Shown: piece by piece, positions 28,743 through 42,068 of the stretch | How the letters are laid out: each line of letters begins with the position of its first letter | How positions within the stretch are numbered: the stretch's first letter is position 1 | IMG/VR virus record: IMGVR_UViG_3300037264_002333 | Span: 1-42,294 of that record | Length of the DNA stretch: 42,294 nt | Source: a virus | Direction: 5' to 3' (one strand) | Notes under the pieces: model-generated | Seen by the model: only the letters and a program-made list of their open reading frames with translations | What the model was told of the DNA's origin: nothing | The model's database searches: none | Translations under genes and position numbers: made by a program

Positions 28743-29840
28743 ATGCCACGGATAGCGCGGCAGTCAGGGGTCGGCGGGTCAGAACGGGCCTTCGGTGTGG
28801 AGTTTGAATTCACGGGCCGGATGACCCTCGCCGCGTACGGCGACATTGTGAAAACGGCGCTGCGCCCGTTCGGCGTGCCCGATTCACAGGTTGTCGTGGC
28901 GGGATACCGGCACTCTGACGGGACCACCTGGGACATGAAGACGGATGCGTCCTGCGGGTTCGAGTTGGCCACGCCCCGCATCACCTGGGCGGACTGGCCC
29001 AAGGTGGAAGCGGTCACGGCGGCGCTCTTGGCGGCGGGTGCCCGTTCGACGGTCCAGTGCGGGGTCCATGTCCATCACGAGGTCCGCGACTACACGCCCG
29101 CGAATCTCCGCGACCTGATAAAAGTGTGGGCGCTGCATGATGACGCGATTCACGCCATGCTGACGCAAAGTCGGCAGGACAATCACTTCGCGAAGACCTT
29201 CACCCGGCTCGAAAACTTGCGCAAGGGGCGCAATGGCGAAGTCGTGACGGACCTGGTGAAAGCGACCGTGCGCTCGGCCTGGGTGCGCTTCGCCACGTTC
29301 CTGCGGACGGACCAGTCGATGCAACAGTACATCGAATCGAAGGGCCGGTACACGAGCCTGAACACGACACTGTTCTGGCGGTCTGGCCGCGTCGAAGTGC
29401 GGGCGCACCACGGCTCCCTGAAAGCTGCCGACGTGGCTCCCTGGATTGAATTCACGCAGCGGCTGGTTGATCGGGTTCAGCAGGGGCGAATGTACTGGAC
29501 ACAAGAGCGGGAAGTCGAGCGGCTCGTGGCCGTTCCCCGCCGCCGCCTGGAGTCCCTGATGGTCCTGGTCACGGGCCACCCCACACGGCGCACCGACAGC
29601 GACAAGCAGTTGGTCACGCAATTGCGGAGATTCGTACGGAAGCGCCAGCCCAGCTTCTTGGGGCAGCGGGGTGGGGACTGGCGGGCACGGCGGGCGGCTG
29701 GTGGGGCGCGGGTGGCCACGCCAGTACAGCAGATGACGGAAGCGGCGGCCAACATCTGGCGTGGGGCGCGGGTGGCCACGCCAGTACAGCAGATGACGGA
29801 AGCGGCGGCCAACATCGGGCGCGTGGTCCTGAGCCTGTAA
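28743..29840 (+). CDS. Amidoligase-family (GCS-like COOH-NH2 ligase) enzyme, 365 aa
   Basis: Motifs fit the Amidoligase_2 family, relatives of gamma-glutamylcysteine synthetase that join a carboxylate to an amine using ATP: FGVEFEF (17-23) with the metal-binding glutamates E20 and E22, MKTDASCGFELATP (65-78), CGVHVHHE (106-113), and VEVRAHHGS in the C-terminal half. The substrate is unknown. Literature on this family describes pairs with class II glutamine amidotransferases, which is exactly the next gene here. The last 45 residues hold a 20-residue segment duplicated in tandem, most of it outside the catalytic core. Both genes probably act together on a peptide, cell-wall or protein target. 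Confidence 0.75.
   Translation: MPRIARQSGVGGSERAFGVEFEFTGRMTLAAYGDIVKTALRPFGVPDSQVVVAGYRHSDGTTWDMKTDASCGFELATPRITWADWPKVEAVTAALLAAGARSTVQCGVHVHHEVRDYTPANLRDLIKVWALHDDAIHAMLTQSRQDNHFAKTFTRLENLRKGRNGEVVTDLVKATVRSAWVRFATFLRTDQSMQQYIESKGRYTSLNTTLFWRSGRVEVRAHHGSLKAADVAPWIEFTQRLVDRVQQGRMYWTQEREVERLVAVPRRRLESLMVLVTGHPTRRTDSDKQLVTQLRRFVRKRQPSFLGQRGGDWRARRAAGGARVATPVQQMTEAAANIWRGARVATPVQQMTEAAANIGRVVLSL
29701..29820 (+). repeat. 60-bp tandem duplication in the amidoligase gene
   Basis: 29701-29760 and 29761-29820 are identical at 59 of 60 bases (only position 57 of the unit differs, T versus G). The unit is a multiple of three, so it adds one 20-residue copy (GARVATPVQQMTEAAANI core) without breaking the frame. 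Near identity indicates a very recent duplication. Confidence 0.95.
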
Positions 29841-29861: not shown

Positions 29862-31145
29862 ATGTGCGGCATCTTCGGAGTAGTCAAGCCAGCGCCCTTG
29901 CGCATGACCAAGAAAGGCCATGAGCGGTTGGAAGTCTTGCTCGATGCGCTGGCGGCATTGAGCGCCGCTCGGGGAACGGATTCCACCGGGATTGCGCGTA
30001 TCACCATGGGGCAGGCGCCGGTCATCACCAAGGCGGCGGTTCCATCCTGGACATTTATCCAGACAGCGGCTTGGCGCCACGCCGTCGCCACCCCTGACGC
30101 CCACGTGGTCGCGTGGCTGGGACATACGCGGTGGGCGACGCATGGCGATGTGACGGCGGCGAACGCGCATCCGTTCCGCTTCAAGACGCCGGATGGCTAC
30201 GTGGTCGGGACGCACAACGGGGTCATTCACAATCACGCGAATCTGCGAGGGCCTGACGATAAGGTCTATGAGGTAGACAGCGCCAATCTGATCGCGGCGC
30301 TTGCACAACTCCCCGTTGCGGAGTGGCCCGACTTGCTGAATCGCGTGACGGGGAGTATGGCGCTGGCCTTGAGTGTCGTGACGGACCGGCACCAATCCGT
30401 GGTGCTGACGCGGAATAGCGGCAATCCCTTGTGGATGGCGCGAGCGCCCAAGATGGGGAACCTCCTGGTGTACGCCAGCACGTACGACATTCTGACCCGT
30501 GCGGCGGATACGGCTGGCATCACCATACAGGGGATGAAAGAGCTTTCCGCAGGCACGCTCCTGACCATCCGCCCGACGCGCAACACCCTGCGCCTCAAGG
30601 TGCAGCGGTGGGCGCCAGAGAAACAGGACATGTGGGATGTGTGGCGCGCCGGGCGGCCCGCGAGCACGAACGTGAGTGTCAAGCTGTCTCCCACTGGACC
30701 ACGGACGACGTACACCCTGGGTCCGGCTGAGAGCAACAGGGTGCAGCCGAAGTTGGACCTCCTACACAAGGCCGCGCCGTACGGCACGAATACGAATCTC
30801 CATCGCAATTGCGGCGGGTGCGGGAAGTGGTTCGTGGAGACCAAGATGGTCAAGGTGCTCGGGGCGGGGACCAATGCGCGACGGTGCGAAGCGTGCGCTA
30901 TGGCTTGGGTGGGGATGGGCGGCAAAGTCGAAGCGGCTCCGCCCCGCCAACCGGCGAGCGAAGTGGACATGGGGGCCGAGCCTGAGGAGGGGCCACACCA
31001 AATGTGCAGCGGGTGCGGCGTTTGGTTCCCCGAAGTCGAGTTGCTGGGGTCTGTGGATACGGGCCAAGCGGGGTGGCGGTGCCTGGACTGCCTGGACCTC
31101 GTAGGGCTTGACACAAGGGTTGACAACAATACGGGCACGGACTAG
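29862..31145 (+). CDS. Class II glutamine amidotransferase with two C-terminal zinc ribbons, 427 aa
   Basis: The N-terminal MCGIFGVV gives the catalytic Cys2 after Met removal; GHTRWATHGD (R90), NAHPF, THNGVIHNH (N119, G120) and the acid DSANLIAAL (D139) are the Ntn-hydrolase glutaminase signatures of the GlmS/PurF class. It would release ammonia from glutamine or act as an amide hydrolase. No sugar isomerase or PRTase domain follows; instead, after about residue 300, there are two zinc ribbons, CGGCGKWF...CEAC and CSGCGVWF...CLDC. This combination with the preceding amidoligase suggests a two-gene peptide/amide-forming system. A GGAGG site precedes ATG 29862. Confidence 0.82.
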   Translation: MCGIFGVVKPAPLRMTKKGHERLEVLLDALAALSAARGTDSTGIARITMGQAPVITKAAVPSWTFIQTAAWRHAVATPDAHVVAWLGHTRWATHGDVTAANAHPFRFKTPDGYVVGTHNGVIHNHANLRGPDDKVYEVDSANLIAALAQLPVAEWPDLLNRVTGSMALALSVVTDRHQSVVLTRNSGNPLWMARAPKMGNLLVYASTYDILTRAADTAGITIQGMKELSAGTLLTIRPTRNTLRLKVQRWAPEKQDMWDVWRAGRPASTNVSVKLSPTGPRTTYTLGPAESNRVQPKLDLLHKAAPYGTNTNLHRNCGGCGKWFVETKMVKVLGAGTNARRCEACAMAWVGMGGKVEAAPPRQPASEVDMGAEPEEGPHQMCSGCGVWFPEVELLGSVDTGQAGWRCLDCLDLVGLDTRVDNNTGTD

Positions 31146-35786: not shown

Positions 35787-35877
35787 ACGAGTGGAGCGGA
35801 GTGGTGGGCCGACGCACATCGGGACCGTGGTGCTTGGGTGGCAACCGTACGACTTGAGTAGGCCGGAGGTGGGGTGA
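35767..35877 (+). CDS. Possible small bridging ORF, 36 aa
   Basis: ATG 35767 lies in the 3' end of the SSB-like gene, and its TGA (35875-35877) overlaps the GTG start at 35874. The product begins MTNCPFERVERSGGP. It spans the otherwise empty 87-base gap and would couple translation to the initiator gene. There is no clear ribosome site and no family match, so it may not be a real gene. Confidence 0.3.
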   Translation: MTNCPFERVERSGGPTHIGTVVLGWQPYDLSRPEVG

Positions 35878-36770
35878 GAGCGAGGATACGGACCATCAAG
35901 CCCGAGTTTTTTCAACATGAGGGACTGTATGATGCCGAAGTTGCAACTCAGTTGCCGCTACGGTTGGCATTCGCTGGCCTGTGGATAGTCGCAGATCGGG
36001 AAGGTCGCTTCGAATGGCGACCACGCGCACTGAAAGCGAACATCCTCCCATATGATGGGATGGACTTCGAAGTGGTCCTGGATGCACTAAGTGCGCATGG
36101 ATTCGTGACCAAGTACAATAGTGACGGTCGGGAATTAGGCTATATCCCAAGCTTCTCCCGACATCAGGTTGTTCACCATTCGGAGCGTGCTAGTGAGCTA
36201 CCAGAGCCTCCGGGTGTTCCCGGTAGACCTACGGTAGGTTCCCCGGTAACTCGCCGTGTCAGCACCGTAAAACCACGTCGTGGAAAGGAAGGGAAAGGAA
36301 AGGAAAGGAAAGGAAAGGAAAGGAAGGAGCAATCTCTTGTGCGCGTTCCGCGCACCTATGCGGTGGTCCGGTCAGAGATTGATTCCAGTTTCCAGCAGCT
36401 AACCGACCAAGCTGTCGAGCGGGAGACTCAGATCGAAGCAGCAGCCGAAATCCTGTTCGCCTACTGGGCGGCCAAAACGGGTCGCCAGAACAATGCGCTG
36501 TACGACAGGCAACGGGCCTCCAGACTGCGGGCGCGGCTCGTCGAAAATGATGGAAACTTGTCGGAGTTGCTCTACGCCGTCGATGGGGCCTTACGGGATG
36601 ACCATTTGACGGGCCGCAGTACTAGTGGCGGGGGCAAGAAATATCTGGGGATTGAGACCCTTTTCCGTGATCGAGCCCAGGTGGAACGGTTGTCCGCGTT
36701 GATGTCGTACCGGATGGGGCAAGAGCATCCCTTACTCGTCCGTCACCGGAGTCAGGATGCACACTCCTAG
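35874..36770 (+). CDS. Phage replication-initiator/helicase-loader-like protein, 298 aa
   Basis: GTG 35874 follows GGAGGTGGGG. The N-terminus RARIRTIKPEFFQHE, then AFAGLWIVADREGRFEWRP and LKANILPYDGMD, is the well-known wHTH domain of phage replication proteins. A strongly basic low-complexity linker (about residues 136-151, GKGKERKGKERKE) is encoded by the GGAAA tract. The C-terminal domain (about 185-285; AAEILFAYWAAKTGRQNNALY... LGIETLFRD) resembles DnaD-like/loader modules. It would bind the origin and load the helicase. The codon and base composition of the first 300 bases is lower in GC than its neighbours, suggesting an origin or recent transfer. Confidence 0.75.
   Translation: MRARIRTIKPEFFQHEGLYDAEVATQLPLRLAFAGLWIVADREGRFEWRPRALKANILPYDGMDFEVVLDALSAHGFVTKYNSDGRELGYIPSFSRHQVVHHSERASELPEPPGVPGRPTVGSPVTRRVSTVKPRRGKEGKGKERKGKERKEQSLVRVPRTYAVVRSEIDSSFQQLTDQAVERETQIEAAAEILFAYWAAKTGRQNNALYDRQRASRLRARLVENDGNLSELLYAVDGALRDDHLTGRSTSGGGKKYLGIETLFRDRAQVERLSALMSYRMGQEHPLLVRHRSQDAHS
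36282..36326 (+). repeat. GGAAA pentanucleotide microsatellite in the initiator gene
   Basis: Nine consecutive 5-mers: GGAAA, GGAAG, six pure GGAAA (36292-36321) and GGAAG. Because 5 is not a multiple of 3, loss or gain of one unit shifts the frame and would truncate the C-terminal domain. Pure purine strand; it could also form triplex or unwound DNA at the origin. Confidence 0.95.
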
Positions 36771-36785: not shown

Positions 36786-37628
36786 GTGGCCAAGAGAATC
36801 AAGCAGGATACGAGCCAGGAAATCCAGATTTTGGAAATCCAGCAGCAGCATGTGCAAGTGGCTATCGTGGGGACGACGCCGCTCATTCTGAACCGTAAGA
36901 GCGAGAAGGCGCGGCGCGAATTGTTGTTCCCGAAGGGAAGGAAGACGGCGGCTGAGAAGGCGCAGTCGCTGAAGCATGAGCCGCTCGTCGAGTATCGGGC
37001 GTCACCGTACACGTTGCCGGATGGCCCGACGTTGCTTGGGGCGCTGGCGACGTGGTTCAAGGGGGCGATGCTCACGGCGGCGCTGGACCTTCCCGGCGTC
37101 AAGAAGGCGCAGATCGGACGCTTGGTCCGCGTCGAAGGTGAGCGGTTGCCGTTGTACGGTACGCCGCAGTTGCACATGTCATCGGTCAACACGGCGGGGT
37201 TCCCGCCAACACCGGACATTCGGACGCGGGCGATTCTTCCGCAGTGGGCGACGTTCCTGACCATCACGTATCCCAGCCCACAGCTTCGCCAAGAGTCGAT
37301 TCTGCACTTGCTCGGGGCGGCTGGCGTGTTCGCTGGAGTCGGGGACTATCGGGCTGAGAAGGCGAAGGGCAACTACGGGAGCTTCCGGCTGGCCTCGGCC
37401 AACGACCCAGAACTGCGGGCCATTCTCAAGCAGGGACGGGACGCCCAGGTGGAGGCGCTGAATACCCCGGCGTGCTACGACGATGAATCCGAATCGCTGT
37501 TCAAGTGGTTCGGCACGGAATTCGTGCTCCGAGGGTACGAGGGCGCCCGTCGTGTCGCAGAGGGGGCGGGGTCGCTCATCGTGACAGGTGTCGATGACGA
37601 GGACGACGAGCCCACACAAGCCGCGTAG
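36786..37628 (+). CDS. Conserved phage protein of unknown function, 280 aa
   Basis: GTG 36786 has GGGAGGCAGG upstream. Motifs IVGTTPLILNRKSEKARRE, then LLGALATWFKGAMLTAA, RAILPQWATFLTI and AGVFAGVGDYRAEKAKGNYG recur in a group of phage proteins I have seen near replication and recombination genes, but I know of no established function. The Gly-rich final motif and length are vaguely like RAMP-type folds; this is too weak to name. It ends acidic (DDEDDEPTQ). A perfect hairpin follows. Confidence 0.6.
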   Translation: MAKRIKQDTSQEIQILEIQQQHVQVAIVGTTPLILNRKSEKARRELLFPKGRKTAAEKAQSLKHEPLVEYRASPYTLPDGPTLLGALATWFKGAMLTAALDLPGVKKAQIGRLVRVEGERLPLYGTPQLHMSSVNTAGFPPTPDIRTRAILPQWATFLTITYPSPQLRQESILHLLGAAGVFAGVGDYRAEKAKGNYGSFRLASANDPELRAILKQGRDAQVEALNTPACYDDESESLFKWFGTEFVLRGYEGARRVAEGAGSLIVTGVDDEDDEPTQAA

Positions 37629-37688: not shown

Positions 37689-38171
37689 ATGTCGAGGAGG
37701 AGAGTCCTTTCAGCGGCTGGCAGGGCGGAGTTGCAGCGGCTCGCCAGTCTGCATGGCGGGAGACTCACCACAAAGAGCGTGGAGCGTGTCGCTCGGAACA
37801 AGAACAGTCCCCTCCATGAGTATTTTGAGTGGGACGACGGAGCCGCCGCGTATCGGTGGCGGCTGTTCCAGGCCCGAGAGTTGATTAGTAGTGTGCGCGT
37901 CGTCGTGACGGTGGACAATGTGCGGATTGATACGGTCGCGTACGTGCGGGACCCGGCGATGGCCGGGGATGAGCAGGGGCATATCGCCGTCGCGACGCTG
38001 GGCCGGAGTCGGGAGGCGGCTCGCAAAGAGTTACAGTACGAGTGGGACCGGGCGGTCGCCCAGATCGAACGGACCCGCAGGCTGGCCGTCGTGCTGGGGC
38101 TCGTGGATGAATTCGAGGCCATGCTGGCCAGTCTCAGTCGCTTCAGTGCGTTGGTGGAACGAGCGTCGTAG
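37689..38171 (+). CDS. Unknown phage protein, 160 aa
   Basis: ATG 37689 follows AGAAAGGGG. The N-terminal part is basic (MSRRRVLSAAGRAELQRL) with an HTH-like helix pair (LTTKSVERVARNKNSPLHEYFEWDD split across), as in the phage proteins with pattern --l-dWAr-p-SpLH--feWdd. The C-terminal half is a charged helical bundle ending near FSALVERAS. Function unknown. It is the last clear gene before the GGYNN array. Confidence 0.6.
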   Translation: MSRRRVLSAAGRAELQRLASLHGGRLTTKSVERVARNKNSPLHEYFEWDDGAAAYRWRLFQARELISSVRVVVTVDNVRIDTVAYVRDPAMAGDEQGHIAVATLGRSREAARKELQYEWDRAVAQIERTRRLAVVLGLVDEFEAMLASLSRFSALVERAS

Positions 38172-38984
38172 GTACGGCGTGGCGCGGCAGGGCCGGGTCA
38201 GGCTCGGTAAGGCGCGGCAGGTTGGGTTGGGCTAGGTCAGGCCGGGTAGGGTAGTCCGTGGTCTGGAGTGGCAGGCATGGTGCGGCGTGGCGAAGCTGGG
38301 TCGGACTGGGCGCTGTGCGGTATGGCAGGAGCGGTTAGTCCAGGCCGGGTATGTGCTGGTAAGTCATGGCAGGTTTCCTCAGGGTAAGGCTGGGCGCGTC
38401 ACGGCGAGGCTGGGCAAGGCTAGGCAGGCGCGCTCGGGCAAGGCCCGGCGGGGCCAGGTCGGGCCTGGCTCGGTGCGGTTTGGTGCGGCAGGTGTGGTTC
38501 GGCCCGGACAGGGCGTGACGAGGCGAGGCTGGGCAAGGCTAGGCAAGGCATGTAAAGGTCGGGCTCGGTTAGACCGGGTATGGCGAGGTACGGCCGGGCA
38601 AGGCAGGTGCGGTTAGGCCGGGCGGGGCCGTGTGTGGCTGGGTAGGTTCCGGCGAGGCTTGGCAGGTATGGTGGTGCTTGGTAGGGTGGGGCTCGGTCGG
38701 GCGTGGCAGGAGCGACCTGGTGAGGCCCGGCGCGGTGACGGCACGGCCGGGTGAGGCGTGGCAAGGCAGGAGAGGTAAGCCAAGGCCGGGCCGGGCACGG
38801 CTGGGTGTGGCGTGACAGGTGGGGTCAGGCCAGGTAAGGCTGGGCCGGGTGTGGCGCGGTGTGGCCCGGCAGGTGGGGCTGGGTGTGGCACGACTCGGCC
38901 GGGCAAGGTCAGTCTTGGTCCGGCAGGTAAGGCGCGGCGGGGTCAGTCGTGGTACGACGGGGCGCGGTTGGGTCTGGCAGGCAC
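38172..38984 (+). repeat. GGYNN pentamer array with about 54-nt higher-order period
   Basis: This roughly 810-base gap has no supportable gene. It is built of degenerate pentamers GG(C/T)NN kept in strict 5-nt phase, for example GGCTG GGCAA GGCTA. The phase is reset by 4-mers at recurring GGCAGG sites, found near 38186, 38216, 38270, 38324, 38368, 38423, 38487, 38602, 38661, 38705, 38765, (38814 as GACAGG), 38868, 38922 and 38976. Spacings of exactly 54 occur six times or nearly so, and most others equal n x 5 + 4 (44, 49, 59, 64). The G-rich strand is the coding strand. GG-N3-GG-N3-GG-N3-GG is the minimal two-tetrad G-quadruplex pattern. Role unknown; replication origin, R-loop site, packaging/partition site or structural RNA are possible. 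Confidence 0.85.
38403..38545 (+). repeat. Exact 24-bp direct repeat inside the GGYNN array
   Basis: 38403-38426 and 38522-38545 are identical 24-mers, 119 bp apart, each made of five in-phase GGYNN units beginning GGCGA GGCTG. They are the longest exact repeat I found within the array, showing that expansion by copying of multi-unit blocks has happened. Confidence 0.85.
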
Positions 38985-38999
38985 AGGAGACAAACCAAA

Positions 39000-39404
39000 A
39001 TGGGACATTGGGTGCAGCGCGTGAACGGTCATGGCCGCCCGTTCCAGCAGTGGTTCCCGTCACATCCACAGGAATCCTTGCCGGAGTTTGGTCCAGGGAC
39101 CGCGAGTCCTGACTGTCCCATTTGCGGCGCGGCATTCGTGAAAGTGTACCCGCCGAAGTATCACACTGATGGGGTGGTGAACGCTGAGGGGGAGAAGGTC
39201 CGCAACGTGGCCTCGATGTTCATGCTCGCTGGCCCAGAGCATTTGCGGCAGCATGACCCCTGGGATGGGGACCCTCGGCCCTGGGCGCTGCGGATAACCC
39301 ATGATACGTTAATGCACGAGACCTACAACCCCGCGACGTACGAACGTGAAGTGAGCGGGGAACCAGAACTCCCACGTCCGCGTCGAGCGGCAGAGGGTAT
39401 GTAA
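39000..39404 (+). CDS. Zinc-finger-containing hypothetical protein, 134 aa
   Basis: ATG 39000 has CAGGAGA about 9 bases upstream, directly at the edge of the array. Residues about 39-44 contain CPICGAAF, and HLRQH follows some 45 residues later (LAGPEHLRQHDPWDG), giving a possible C-C-H-H site. The rest is Pro-rich with a charged end. No family recognised. Confidence 0.55.
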   Translation: MGHWVQRVNGHGRPFQQWFPSHPQESLPEFGPGTASPDCPICGAAFVKVYPPKYHTDGVVNAEGEKVRNVASMFMLAGPEHLRQHDPWDGDPRPWALRITHDTLMHETYNPATYEREVSGEPELPRPRRAAEGM

Positions 39405-40484: not shown

Positions 40485-40756
40485 ACTCTGTGTCTGAGCG
40501 TGGCATCCTGCGTCTGTTCCCCTACTTCGTGCGCGGGGTGGCGTGTCTCGCCGCGCTGGTGCTCGGGGACTGGCACTACGCCCTCGTGGGACTGATCGTC
40601 GCGGACATTATGCGCCTTGCTACTCCGGCGTCCTGGGATGAGGAGCCTGCCTCCCCGTCTGCGCAGCGGCACCTCTGCGAGTTGTGCGCGTACGGGTGGG
40701 ACGGGCCGGAGACCCGGTGCCCGCGCTGTGGGCTTCAAGAAGTCGAGCCGCGATGA
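40481..40756 (+). CDS. Membrane protein with C-terminal zinc ribbon, 91 aa
   Basis: GTG 40481 overlaps the previous TGA. A hydrophobic segment (about residues 12-45, FPYFVRGVACLAALVLGDW with a second short one after it) is followed by a cytoplasmic-type ribbon CELCAYGWDGPETRCPRCG. Membrane-tethered zinc ribbons can recruit partners to the envelope; no family recognised. Confidence 0.55.
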   Translation: MNSVSERGILRLFPYFVRGVACLAALVLGDWHYALVGLIVADIMRLATPASWDEEPASPSAQRHLCELCAYGWDGPETRCPRCGLQEVEPR

Positions 40757-41292
40757 CGCGCAAGCCATTACGGCGTCTTGTCGGCATCGACCCGAGCTTG
40801 ACGGCCACTGGGCTCGTCGTCGTGGAACTCACGCCCACGACGCAGACAGTGGTCTGGCGTCGGACTGTGCGGAGTCACACGGGGGAGGATTTGCTAGCGC
40901 GACTGTCTCAATTGGCCACCACGGTTTCACATGCCGTGGTGGGGGCCACCGAGGCATTCCCCTGTGCGGACGTGGTGATTGAAGACCCCACGGACCAGAA
41001 ACTCATCGGGCGGAATCGCAATGTGGGGAGTATCTGTAAGCTGGGCGCGGCAGTGGGTGCCATTATGGTCTCGGTCGCCCGCGACATCCATCTCCCGATG
41101 CACGCGGTTCCGGCTAGTCACTGGCTCCCCAAGACCCAGACGGGGAATTTCCGACATGCCGTGAAGCACGATGTGGCGAAACTGTTGCTCCGACACCAAA
41201 TTGTGGGCCTCGATGAGGCGACGGACGATGAAGTCTTCGCCGCAGGCGTCGCGGTCTGGTGGGCTCATCATTCCAAGGAGGAAGACCTGTGA
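40753..41292 (+). CDS. RuvC-like Holliday-junction resolvase, 179 aa
   Basis: Cleaves branched DNA during recombination, replication or before packaging. Catalytic pattern: GIDPSLTATGL with D13, VVIEDP with E77, a basic helix FRHAVKHDVAKLLL with the Lys, and the C-terminal DEATDDEVFAAGVAVWW with D158/D159, the usual D-E-D-D set of RuvC. Length is normal. It is coupled to its neighbours by ATGA/GTGA overlaps. A late or replication-associated role is likely. Confidence 0.82.
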   Translation: MTRKPLRRLVGIDPSLTATGLVVVELTPTTQTVVWRRTVRSHTGEDLLARLSQLATTVSHAVVGATEAFPCADVVIEDPTDQKLIGRNRNVGSICKLGAAVGAIMVSVARDIHLPMHAVPASHWLPKTQTGNFRHAVKHDVAKLLLRHQIVGLDEATDDEVFAAGVAVWWAHHSKEEDL

Positions 41293-42068
41293 CCACACCC
41301 AAGAAGAAGAAGAAGGCTCGCCAGGCGGAGCCCGTGACCCATGTCGCGCTCATTCTTGATCGCAGCGGGTCCATGATGGAGTGCCGGGACGCGACCATTG
41401 ACGGGTTCAACGCCCAGCGCGCCTCCATCCAGGCGAATGTCGCGCAAGGGGATGAAGTCCGTATCACGTTCTTGAGTTTCGGGGGCCGAGGGCCGAGTGG
41501 GGTGCATCTCCACAAGTACAATCGCCCTATCGCAGAACTCGATGCGCTCACTCCTGAGACCTACATCCCGACAGGCGGTACGCCGTTGTATGACGCTGTG
41601 GGGGAGGCGCTCGCGCAATTGCAGCGGCATGACGAGCAGGGTAAAGACATCGGGTTTCTCGTCATCATCTTGTCGGACGGTCAGGAAAATTCCTCCACGG
41701 AATGGGTCTCGCCGCCGCCCAAACACAAAGGGGAGAAGCTGGCGGCGCGCATCAAGAAGCTCCGCGACACGGGGCGCTGGAACTTCGTGTACATCGGGGC
41801 GAACCAAGACTTGGCGGATGTGCAGCGGCATCTGGGCGTGCAGCAAGCTGTGGCCTACACCCCCTCTCCGGCTGGGACGCAGCGACTGTATGAAGTGTCG
41901 AGCCGCAGTCTCGGCTCCTATCTCTCGGCGCGGAGTCACGGGCTCACTCCACAGGCCAGCGCGGTCGCGTACGACGTGGCGTTGGAGGCGTGTCCCGAGT
42001 GTCATCATTTGGGTGCTGGGCATGCCGCAGGGTGTGCTCGCGAGGCGCGGCAAGGCCAAGGCAGGTGA
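41289..42068 (+). CDS. von Willebrand A (VWA) domain protein, 259 aa
   Basis: GTG 41289 overlaps the previous stop. The MIDAS site is complete: DRSGSM (D24, S26, S28), PTGGTPLYDA (the Thr at about 97) and LSDGQENSS (Asp at about 135). The fold binds Mg2+ and partner proteins. N-terminal Lys-rich tail (KKKKKARQ) suggests nucleic-acid contact. Near the C-terminus CPECHHLGAGHAAGC may form a zinc site. The last residues (REARQGQGR) are encoded inside the second GGYNN array, so the 3' end has been altered by it. Role unknown; phage VWA proteins often pair with AAA+ ATPases, not visible here. Confidence 0.82.
   Translation: MTTPKKKKKARQAEPVTHVALILDRSGSMMECRDATIDGFNAQRASIQANVAQGDEVRITFLSFGGRGPSGVHLHKYNRPIAELDALTPETYIPTGGTPLYDAVGEALAQLQRHDEQGKDIGFLVIILSDGQENSSTEWVSPPPKHKGEKLAARIKKLRDTGRWNFVYIGANQDLADVQRHLGVQQAVAYTPSPAGTQRLYEVSSRSLGSYLSARSHGLTPQASAVAYDVALEACPECHHLGAGHAAGCAREARQGQGR

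What the first reader, a model, noticed from the sequence alone, without database searches (positions are those of the whole stretch)
38172..38984. Hierarchical GGYNN array: 5-nt units, GGCAGG punctuation, recurring 54-nt blocks
About 810 bases keep GG every five bases with a pyrimidine next, and the phase is reset by 4-mers at GGCAGG sites. Distances between GGCAGG sites are 54, 54, 44, 55, 64, 115, 59, 44, 60, 49, 54, 54, 54 from 38216 on, largely n x 5 + 4. The unit sequence varies but the phase does not, so selection or a copying mechanism acts on spacing rather than on sequence. It is not CRISPR, coding, or a simple satellite. Possible roles: two-tetrad G-quadruplex or R-loop tract for replication start, binding scaffold for a polymerising phage protein (54 bp is about five helical turns), partition or packaging site, or a structured non-coding RNA.
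Basis: seen in the sequence. Interest (0 to 1): 0.86.

Follow-up and report, generated by a model that had tools for sequence, protein, structure and literature searches.

The report
Phage VIPR guide-RNA array with punctuation
This stretch of a phage genome is a bank of guide-RNA sequences for VIPR, a recently described CRISPR-related system that phages use against rival phages; the guides are strung together without gaps and are separated by a fixed four-letter mark.

Summary
About 165 units sit in five-base register over 38171-38986 (GG lag-5 autocorrelation 0.48; highest of 1000 shuffles 0.14). GGY is fixed, NN is random, and the phase is reset by a conserved GGCA.

It is a vrRNA array of a VIPR system (preprint PMC13142463, 2026). 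The gene at 36786-37628 encodes a Vipr-family RAMP. Its family profile hits the solved SUSP1 Vipr (36pp) at E=2e-32. Its AlphaFold model matches CRISPR Csm/type VII backbone subunits, and its C-terminus has the glycine-rich loop. The next gene, 37689-38171 (phrog_15946), is the likely accessory protein. Of 120 viral contigs picked only by a GGYNN DNA pattern, 88 encode this Vipr; 172 of 174 arrays lie on its strand.

New detail: Viprs with this accessory gene form one clade (39 of 41 rows). Nearly all have long arrays, mostly punctuated by GGCA, unlike the tailed single guides of SUSP1. In Mycobacterium phages, whole GGCA-to-GGCA blocks are present or absent. I infer one block is one guide.

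Targets under the published one-base-skip rule were sought and not convincingly found; transcription is untested. The kind is known; this is a new, unannotated member with a distinctive array layout.

The parts
36786..37628 (+). vipr gene (GTG start), 280 aa: RAMP-family RNA-binding protein with a C-terminal extension shared by its sub-clade
   Evidence: phrog_4652 E=6e-14; family profile hits PDB 36pp 'SUSP1 Vipr protein' E=2.2e-32; AlphaFold model pLDDT 87.7; Foldseek best PDB hits are Csm and type VII CRISPR backbone subunits, E down to 1.4e-5
37689..38171 (+). putative vap (VIPR accessory protein), 160 aa, phrog_15946 family; fold confident but unmatched, weak winged-helix-like hits
   Evidence: model pLDDT 92.5; no PDB match at E<0.001; present in 43 of the 59 full-context loci with continuous/punctuated arrays and in 1 of the 30 without
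38171..38986 (+). vrRNA array: about 165 GGYNN units, continuous, phase reset by 4-nt GGCA
38220..38273 (+). block/putative guide, 11 units, NN = TG TG TA CA CG AG AG GT CT GT, ends GGCA
38274..38327 (+). block/putative guide, 11 units, ends GGCA
38427..38490 (+). block/putative guide, 13 units, NN = GC CG AA CC GG CA CG CT TC GC TT GC, ends GGCA
38606..38664 (+). block/putative guide, 12 units, ends GGCA
38665..38708 (+). block/putative guide, 9 units, ends GGCA
38818..38871 (+). block/putative guide, 11 units after a GACA separator at 38814, NN = GG CA CA AA TG CG GT GC GT CC
38872..38925 (+). block/putative guide, 11 units, NN = GG TG GT AC TC CG AA CA TT CC, ends GGCA
38926..38979 (+). last block/putative guide, 11 units, ends GGCA

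Best explanation
The array is the guide-RNA bank of a phage-borne VIPR system. It is probably transcribed rightward together with vipr (36786-37628) and the accessory gene (37689-38171). Vipr subunits, which are RAMPs like the CRISPR Csm3/Cas7 backbone, coat the RNA with one unit per GGYNN. The invariant GGY is held by protein, and the variable NN pairs are displayed to read double-stranded DNA in steps of two bases with one skipped, which represses rival mobile elements. In this clade GGCA marks the boundary between consecutive guides of about 9-13 units. Shown here: the array and its statistics, the RAMP identity, the genetic linkage, the clade, the conserved separator, and whole-block presence/absence. 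Published for a relative (SUSP1), not shown here: RNA loading, the 1-nt skip rule, repression. Inferred: one block is one guide, GGCA is a boundary, one protein subunit per unit, and the co-transcription.
For: The family profile matches the solved SUSP1 Vipr at E=2.2e-32, and a window-seeded HMM finds SUSP1 Vipr at 2e-45. The predicted fold matches Csm/type VII RAMP subunits, with a conserved GxGxxRPxxxGxxGxF loop. Contigs chosen only by the GGYNN pattern encode this protein in 88 of 120 cases, with 172 of 174 arrays on the same strand at a median distance of 124 bases. Unit form GGY + random NN, with blocks of 9-13 units, matches the published 9-16 YNNGG. The separator is GGCA: in 163 selected phase breaks its C is 98% and A 94%, against about 0 bits at NN. 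In Mycobacterium F1 phages whole GGCA-bounded blocks are present or absent, and the few substitutions compared all fall in NN.
Against: No convincing target was found: four window blocks and one Mycobacterium-phage block against IMG/VR, and one Bradyrhizobium and two Aureimonas blocks against genomes of their genus. The accessory protein is not homologous to SUSP1 vap1. There is no per-guide 3' tail as in SUSP1. No promoter or terminator was recognised around the array. A direct pairwise match of the window protein to 36pp is weak (E=0.62), so homology rests on the family profile. Foldseek TM-scores are modest (about 0.3-0.4 by query length, 280 aa with an extension).
Confidence: 0.94

Rival explanations
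1. The array is a double-stranded DNA site (replication origin, partition or packaging scaffold) read by a multimeric phage protein; the neighbouring replication-initiation gene would be its partner.
For: A replication initiation gene lies just upstream at 35874-36770 (phrog_16167 E=5e-45); the regular spacing could suit a polymerising protein.
Against: The array follows Vipr/vap across many phages and prophages. Block length varies in 5-nt steps instead of helical turns. The strand is fixed relative to vipr in 172 of 174 arrays.
Confidence: 0.03
2. G-quadruplex or R-loop tract acting through G-richness.
For: 25 two-tetrad motifs on the + strand and strong GC skew.
Against: G4Hunter score is below composition shuffles, GGG runs are fewer than expected (39 vs 55) and there is no three-tetrad motif. 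It does not explain the conserved phase, GGCA separators or linked RAMP.
Confidence: 0.01
3. A VIPR array, but GGCA is not a guide boundary: guides overlap or span separators (the preprint mentions staggered arrays with overlapping vrRNAs), and GGCA serves RNA processing or subunit phasing inside one longer RNA.
For: The preprint reports staggered arrays with overlapping vrRNAs. Some window segments contain 6-mers or composite lengths (115, 103 nt). No single-block target was found.
Against: Whole GGCA-to-GGCA blocks are present or absent between Mycobacterium phages, and block lengths match published guide lengths.
Confidence: 0.25

Closest known systems
VIPR of Escherichia phage SUSP1 (type II; PMC13142463, PDB 36pp)
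   Same: Vipr RAMP homologue, GGY/NN repeat RNA of similar unit number, minimal phage locus with an accessory gene
   Different: SUSP1 has separate vrRNAs each followed by a 3' tail; here blocks are continuous with a GGCA separator. The accessory proteins are unrelated by sequence.
VIPR-like loci of Mycobacterium F1 phages (Saal, Donkeykong, Quico and others), Gordonia phages Pipp and ODay, cyanophage Cy-LDV1
   Same: Same pair of genes (phrog_4652, phrog_15946 families) and the same GGCA-punctuated continuous arrays
   Different: F1 arrays are nearly pure GGC units and lie upstream of vipr; the window's mix GGC/GGT and lie downstream of the accessory gene. Annotated only as hypothetical proteins or as probably spurious genes.
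Class 1 CRISPR effector backbones (Csm3/Cas7, type VII Cas7)
   Same: RAMP fold found by structure comparison
   Different: No repeat-spacer array found by repeat search; guide read noncontiguously according to the preprint.

Membership tests
VIPR | Vipr protein: minimal RAMP with RRM core | tested here: met
VIPR | Glycine-rich loop in Vipr | tested here: met
   Conserved GxGxxRPxxxGxxGxF C-terminus across 54 homologues
VIPR | Thumb domain contacting guide RNA | not tested
   No model with RNA was made
VIPR | RNA of 9-16 tandem units with conserved GGY and hypervariable NN | tested here: met
   (sequence level only)
VIPR | Minimal locus: vipr, vap and a long non-coding stretch, mostly in phages or proviruses | tested here: met
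VIPR | vap homologous to a published accessory protein | tested here: inconclusive
   Not homologous to SUSP1 vap1; vap2-6 sequences not available (supplements closed)
VIPR type II | Conserved structured 3' tail after each guide | tested here: not met
   Blocks abut with only GGCA between them; no Rfam match above gathering score
VIPR | DNA targets read with a 1-nt skip | tested here: inconclusive
VIPR | vrRNA transcription and binding to Vipr | not testable with these tools
   Needs RNA sequencing or pull-down
CRISPR-Cas | Identical direct repeats separated by unique spacers | tested here: not met
   Tandem repeat search reports nothing in the array
G-quadruplex tract | G-run density above composition expectation | tested here: not met

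The most novel reading that the evidence does not exclude
A distinct VIPR clade stores its guides in a continuous bank in which an invariant GGCA is both the phase reset and the guide boundary. Guides are gained and lost as whole GGCA-to-GGCA modules and drift only in NN, so the bank works as an updatable targeting memory without Cas1-type machinery.
Probability: 0.45. Interest if true: 0.72.

Novelty: new member of a known kind. Interest (0 to 1): 0.56.

Why it matters
VIPR was described only in 2026 and may be ancestral to the CRISPR effector backbone. This locus, together with isolated Mycobacterium and Gordonia phages carrying the same clade, gives a simple handle on two open questions: how guides are delimited in continuous arrays, and how new guides arise. 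The Mycobacterium smegmatis phages are isolated phages of a laboratory strain, so both can be tested directly.

Tried and rejected
Target search by the 1-nt skip rule: all array blocks of 9-16 units against 1.25 Mb of local loci gave no excess over 0-, 2- or 3-nt skips. Eight-dinucleotide cores of window blocks 38427, 38872 and 38220 against 2.9 million viral contigs gave 13, 15 and 7 hits, with flanking dinucleotides at chance and random reading frames. Block 38818 gave one phage family matching all 20 specified bases, in a gene whose product may be a nuclease (judged by eye only). With roughly 20 unrelated core hits inspected, one full match has about an 8% chance of arising at random (my estimate), and the site is not wobble-aligned, so it is only a weak candidate. 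A conserved Mycobacterium-phage block gave 2 chance-like hits. One Bradyrhizobium block in 266 genomes of its genus: none; one Aureimonas block in 21 genomes of its genus: none; a second gave two hits with 2 mismatches, not followed up. Seeking close relatives of the window's Vipr in viral contigs by a single sequence found none. Rfam gave no family above its gathering score. PADLOC and Pfam do not recognise the window's Vipr or accessory protein. Terminator scans after three prophage arrays found one candidate, in L176.

Full report
Check of the observation. The array is real and lies where stated. It starts in the stop codon of the gene 37689-38171 and runs to about 38986, just before the ribosome-binding site of a gene starting at 39000. 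GG recurs at lag 5 with autocorrelation 0.48; 1000 shuffles reach at most 0.14, and no other part of the window comes close except a short GGAAA run inside a gene. Parsed, it has 151 five-base units, 12 four-base units (11 GGCA, 1 GGCG as parsed) and 2 six-base units; the two variable positions use all four bases. G4Hunter is lower than for shuffled sequence, so G-quadruplex formation is not what is selected.

Surroundings. The record is a 42,294-base virus contig with head and tail genes. Upstream of the array lie a replication initiation gene (35874-36770), then 36786-37628 (phrog_4652, unknown) and 37689-38171 (phrog_15946, unknown). Mycobacterium phages Saal and Donkeykong, found by weak DNA similarity to the array itself, have the same two genes beside a GGCNN array. 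A search for relatives of the second gene brought 11 viral loci, 8 of which carry such an array directly downstream.

Identification. A literature search found the preprint PMC13142463, which describes VIPR: a phage-borne RAMP protein, Vipr, that uses RNAs of 9-16 YNNGG units, with fixed GGY and variable NN, to read DNA with one base skipped per step. Three tests were made. (1) A profile of 54 homologues of 36786-37628 matches PDB 36pp, SUSP1 Vipr, at E=2.2e-32, although the single sequence does so only at E=0.62. An HMM seeded by the window's protein finds SUSP1 Vipr at 2e-45. (2) The AlphaFold model (pLDDT 87.7) has as its best PDB matches Csm and type VII CRISPR backbone subunits (58 matches at E<=0.001; all 50 listed are CRISPR components), and the family's most conserved stretch is a C-terminal glycine-rich loop. 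(3) Contigs selected by the DNA pattern alone (eight GGYNN units, no protein information) encode a Vipr in 88 of 120 cases, and 172 of 174 arrays are on the vipr strand. Together these settle membership at the level of gene and array.

What is distinctive. Among full-context Vipr loci, 43 of 44 with the phrog_15946-type gene have a continuous or punctuated array, against 16 of 45 without it (Fisher p about 1e-10, uncorrected for kinship). In a quick tree of 80 Viprs the 39 loci with that gene lie in one 41-row group (SH-aLRT 97), apart from SUSP1; the window sits in a 15-row sub-group with relatives in Alphaproteobacteria, Betaproteobacteria, Binatota and Myxococcota (the careful search did not finish). 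In 44 arrays, 307 phase steps are 4-nt and 22 are 6-nt, and 208 of the 307 read GGCAGG. At 163 selected phase breaks from 40 arrays, the four bases are GGCA with C 98% and A 94%, while NN elsewhere carry almost no information (the GG letters there were required by the selection, the C and A were not). Inner blocks peak at 9-12 units, the size of published guides.

Evolution of the bank. Ten Mycobacterium F1 arrays show whole GGCA-bounded blocks present or absent: ByChance lacks exactly one 59-base block that Saal has, and Donkeykong has two blocks absent from Brocalys. They also show single-unit duplications, and the four substitutions counted in the few equal-length block pairs all fall in the first N (small sample). 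Inside the window, one 24-base stretch is shared by two places (38403 and 38522), which fits internal copying.

Mechanism. Shown here: array, RAMP identity, linkage, clade, separator, block-wise variation. Taken from the preprint for a relative: guide loading, 1-nt skip reading, repression of competing phages. Inferred: blocks are single guides, GGCA is their boundary, and the array is co-transcribed with vipr and the accessory gene. The accessory protein has a confident but unmatched fold with only weak winged-helix hits, so a DNA-binding role is a guess in line with the preprint's statement about several types.

What did not work. Targets under the 1-nt skip rule were not convincingly found. 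One 20-of-20 match for block 38818 in a family of viral contigs is about what chance allows once in a dozen such efforts (my estimate). The absence is weak evidence: the host is unknown and exact matching was required in the largest collection. The type number within VIPR could not be assigned, because the preprint's supplement was not readable.

Verdict. It is a guide-RNA array of a kind first described in 2026; the locus is a new, unannotated member, with an array layout and accessory gene that mark a distinct clade. I did not find this GGCA-punctuated layout described in the preprint's main text, but its supplement (staggered arrays) may cover it.

Noticed in passing
36282-36325: Nearly nine GGAAA copies inside the replication initiation gene, encoding a KGKERKGKERK linker; the only other pentamer tract in the window.
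   Followed up: partly
29701-29821: Two 60-base tandem copies (98% alike) near the end of an amidoligase-like gene (28743-29840), next to a protein with a class II glutamine amidotransferase-like start (MCGIFGVV) at 29862-31145.
   Followed up: no
41259-42068: Von Willebrand factor A-like protein (phrog_7371 E=3e-27; Pfam VWA below cut-off) at the right end of a phage contig, after a RuvC-like resolvase at 40684-41292.
   Followed up: no
L010, L013, L014: Loci with both Vipr and the phrog_15946-type gene but no array found by the GG detector; L010 has two Vipr hits in tandem. Possibly another unit consensus.
   Followed up: no
L177, L178, L180 (start of array): Arrays in Aureimonas, Microvirga and Methylobacterium genomes share a leader-like GGATCACGGC just before the first separator.
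   Followed up: no
L002:3195-3245: Mycobacterium F1 arrays end in a conserved GGCTGG-GCAA-CCAGCC inverted repeat, a possible 3' tail of the whole array.
   Followed up: no
Mycobacterium F1 phage annotations (L205, L208, L209, L211): Deposited records annotate hypothetical proteins inside the guide array; these are probably spurious genes.
   Followed up: partly
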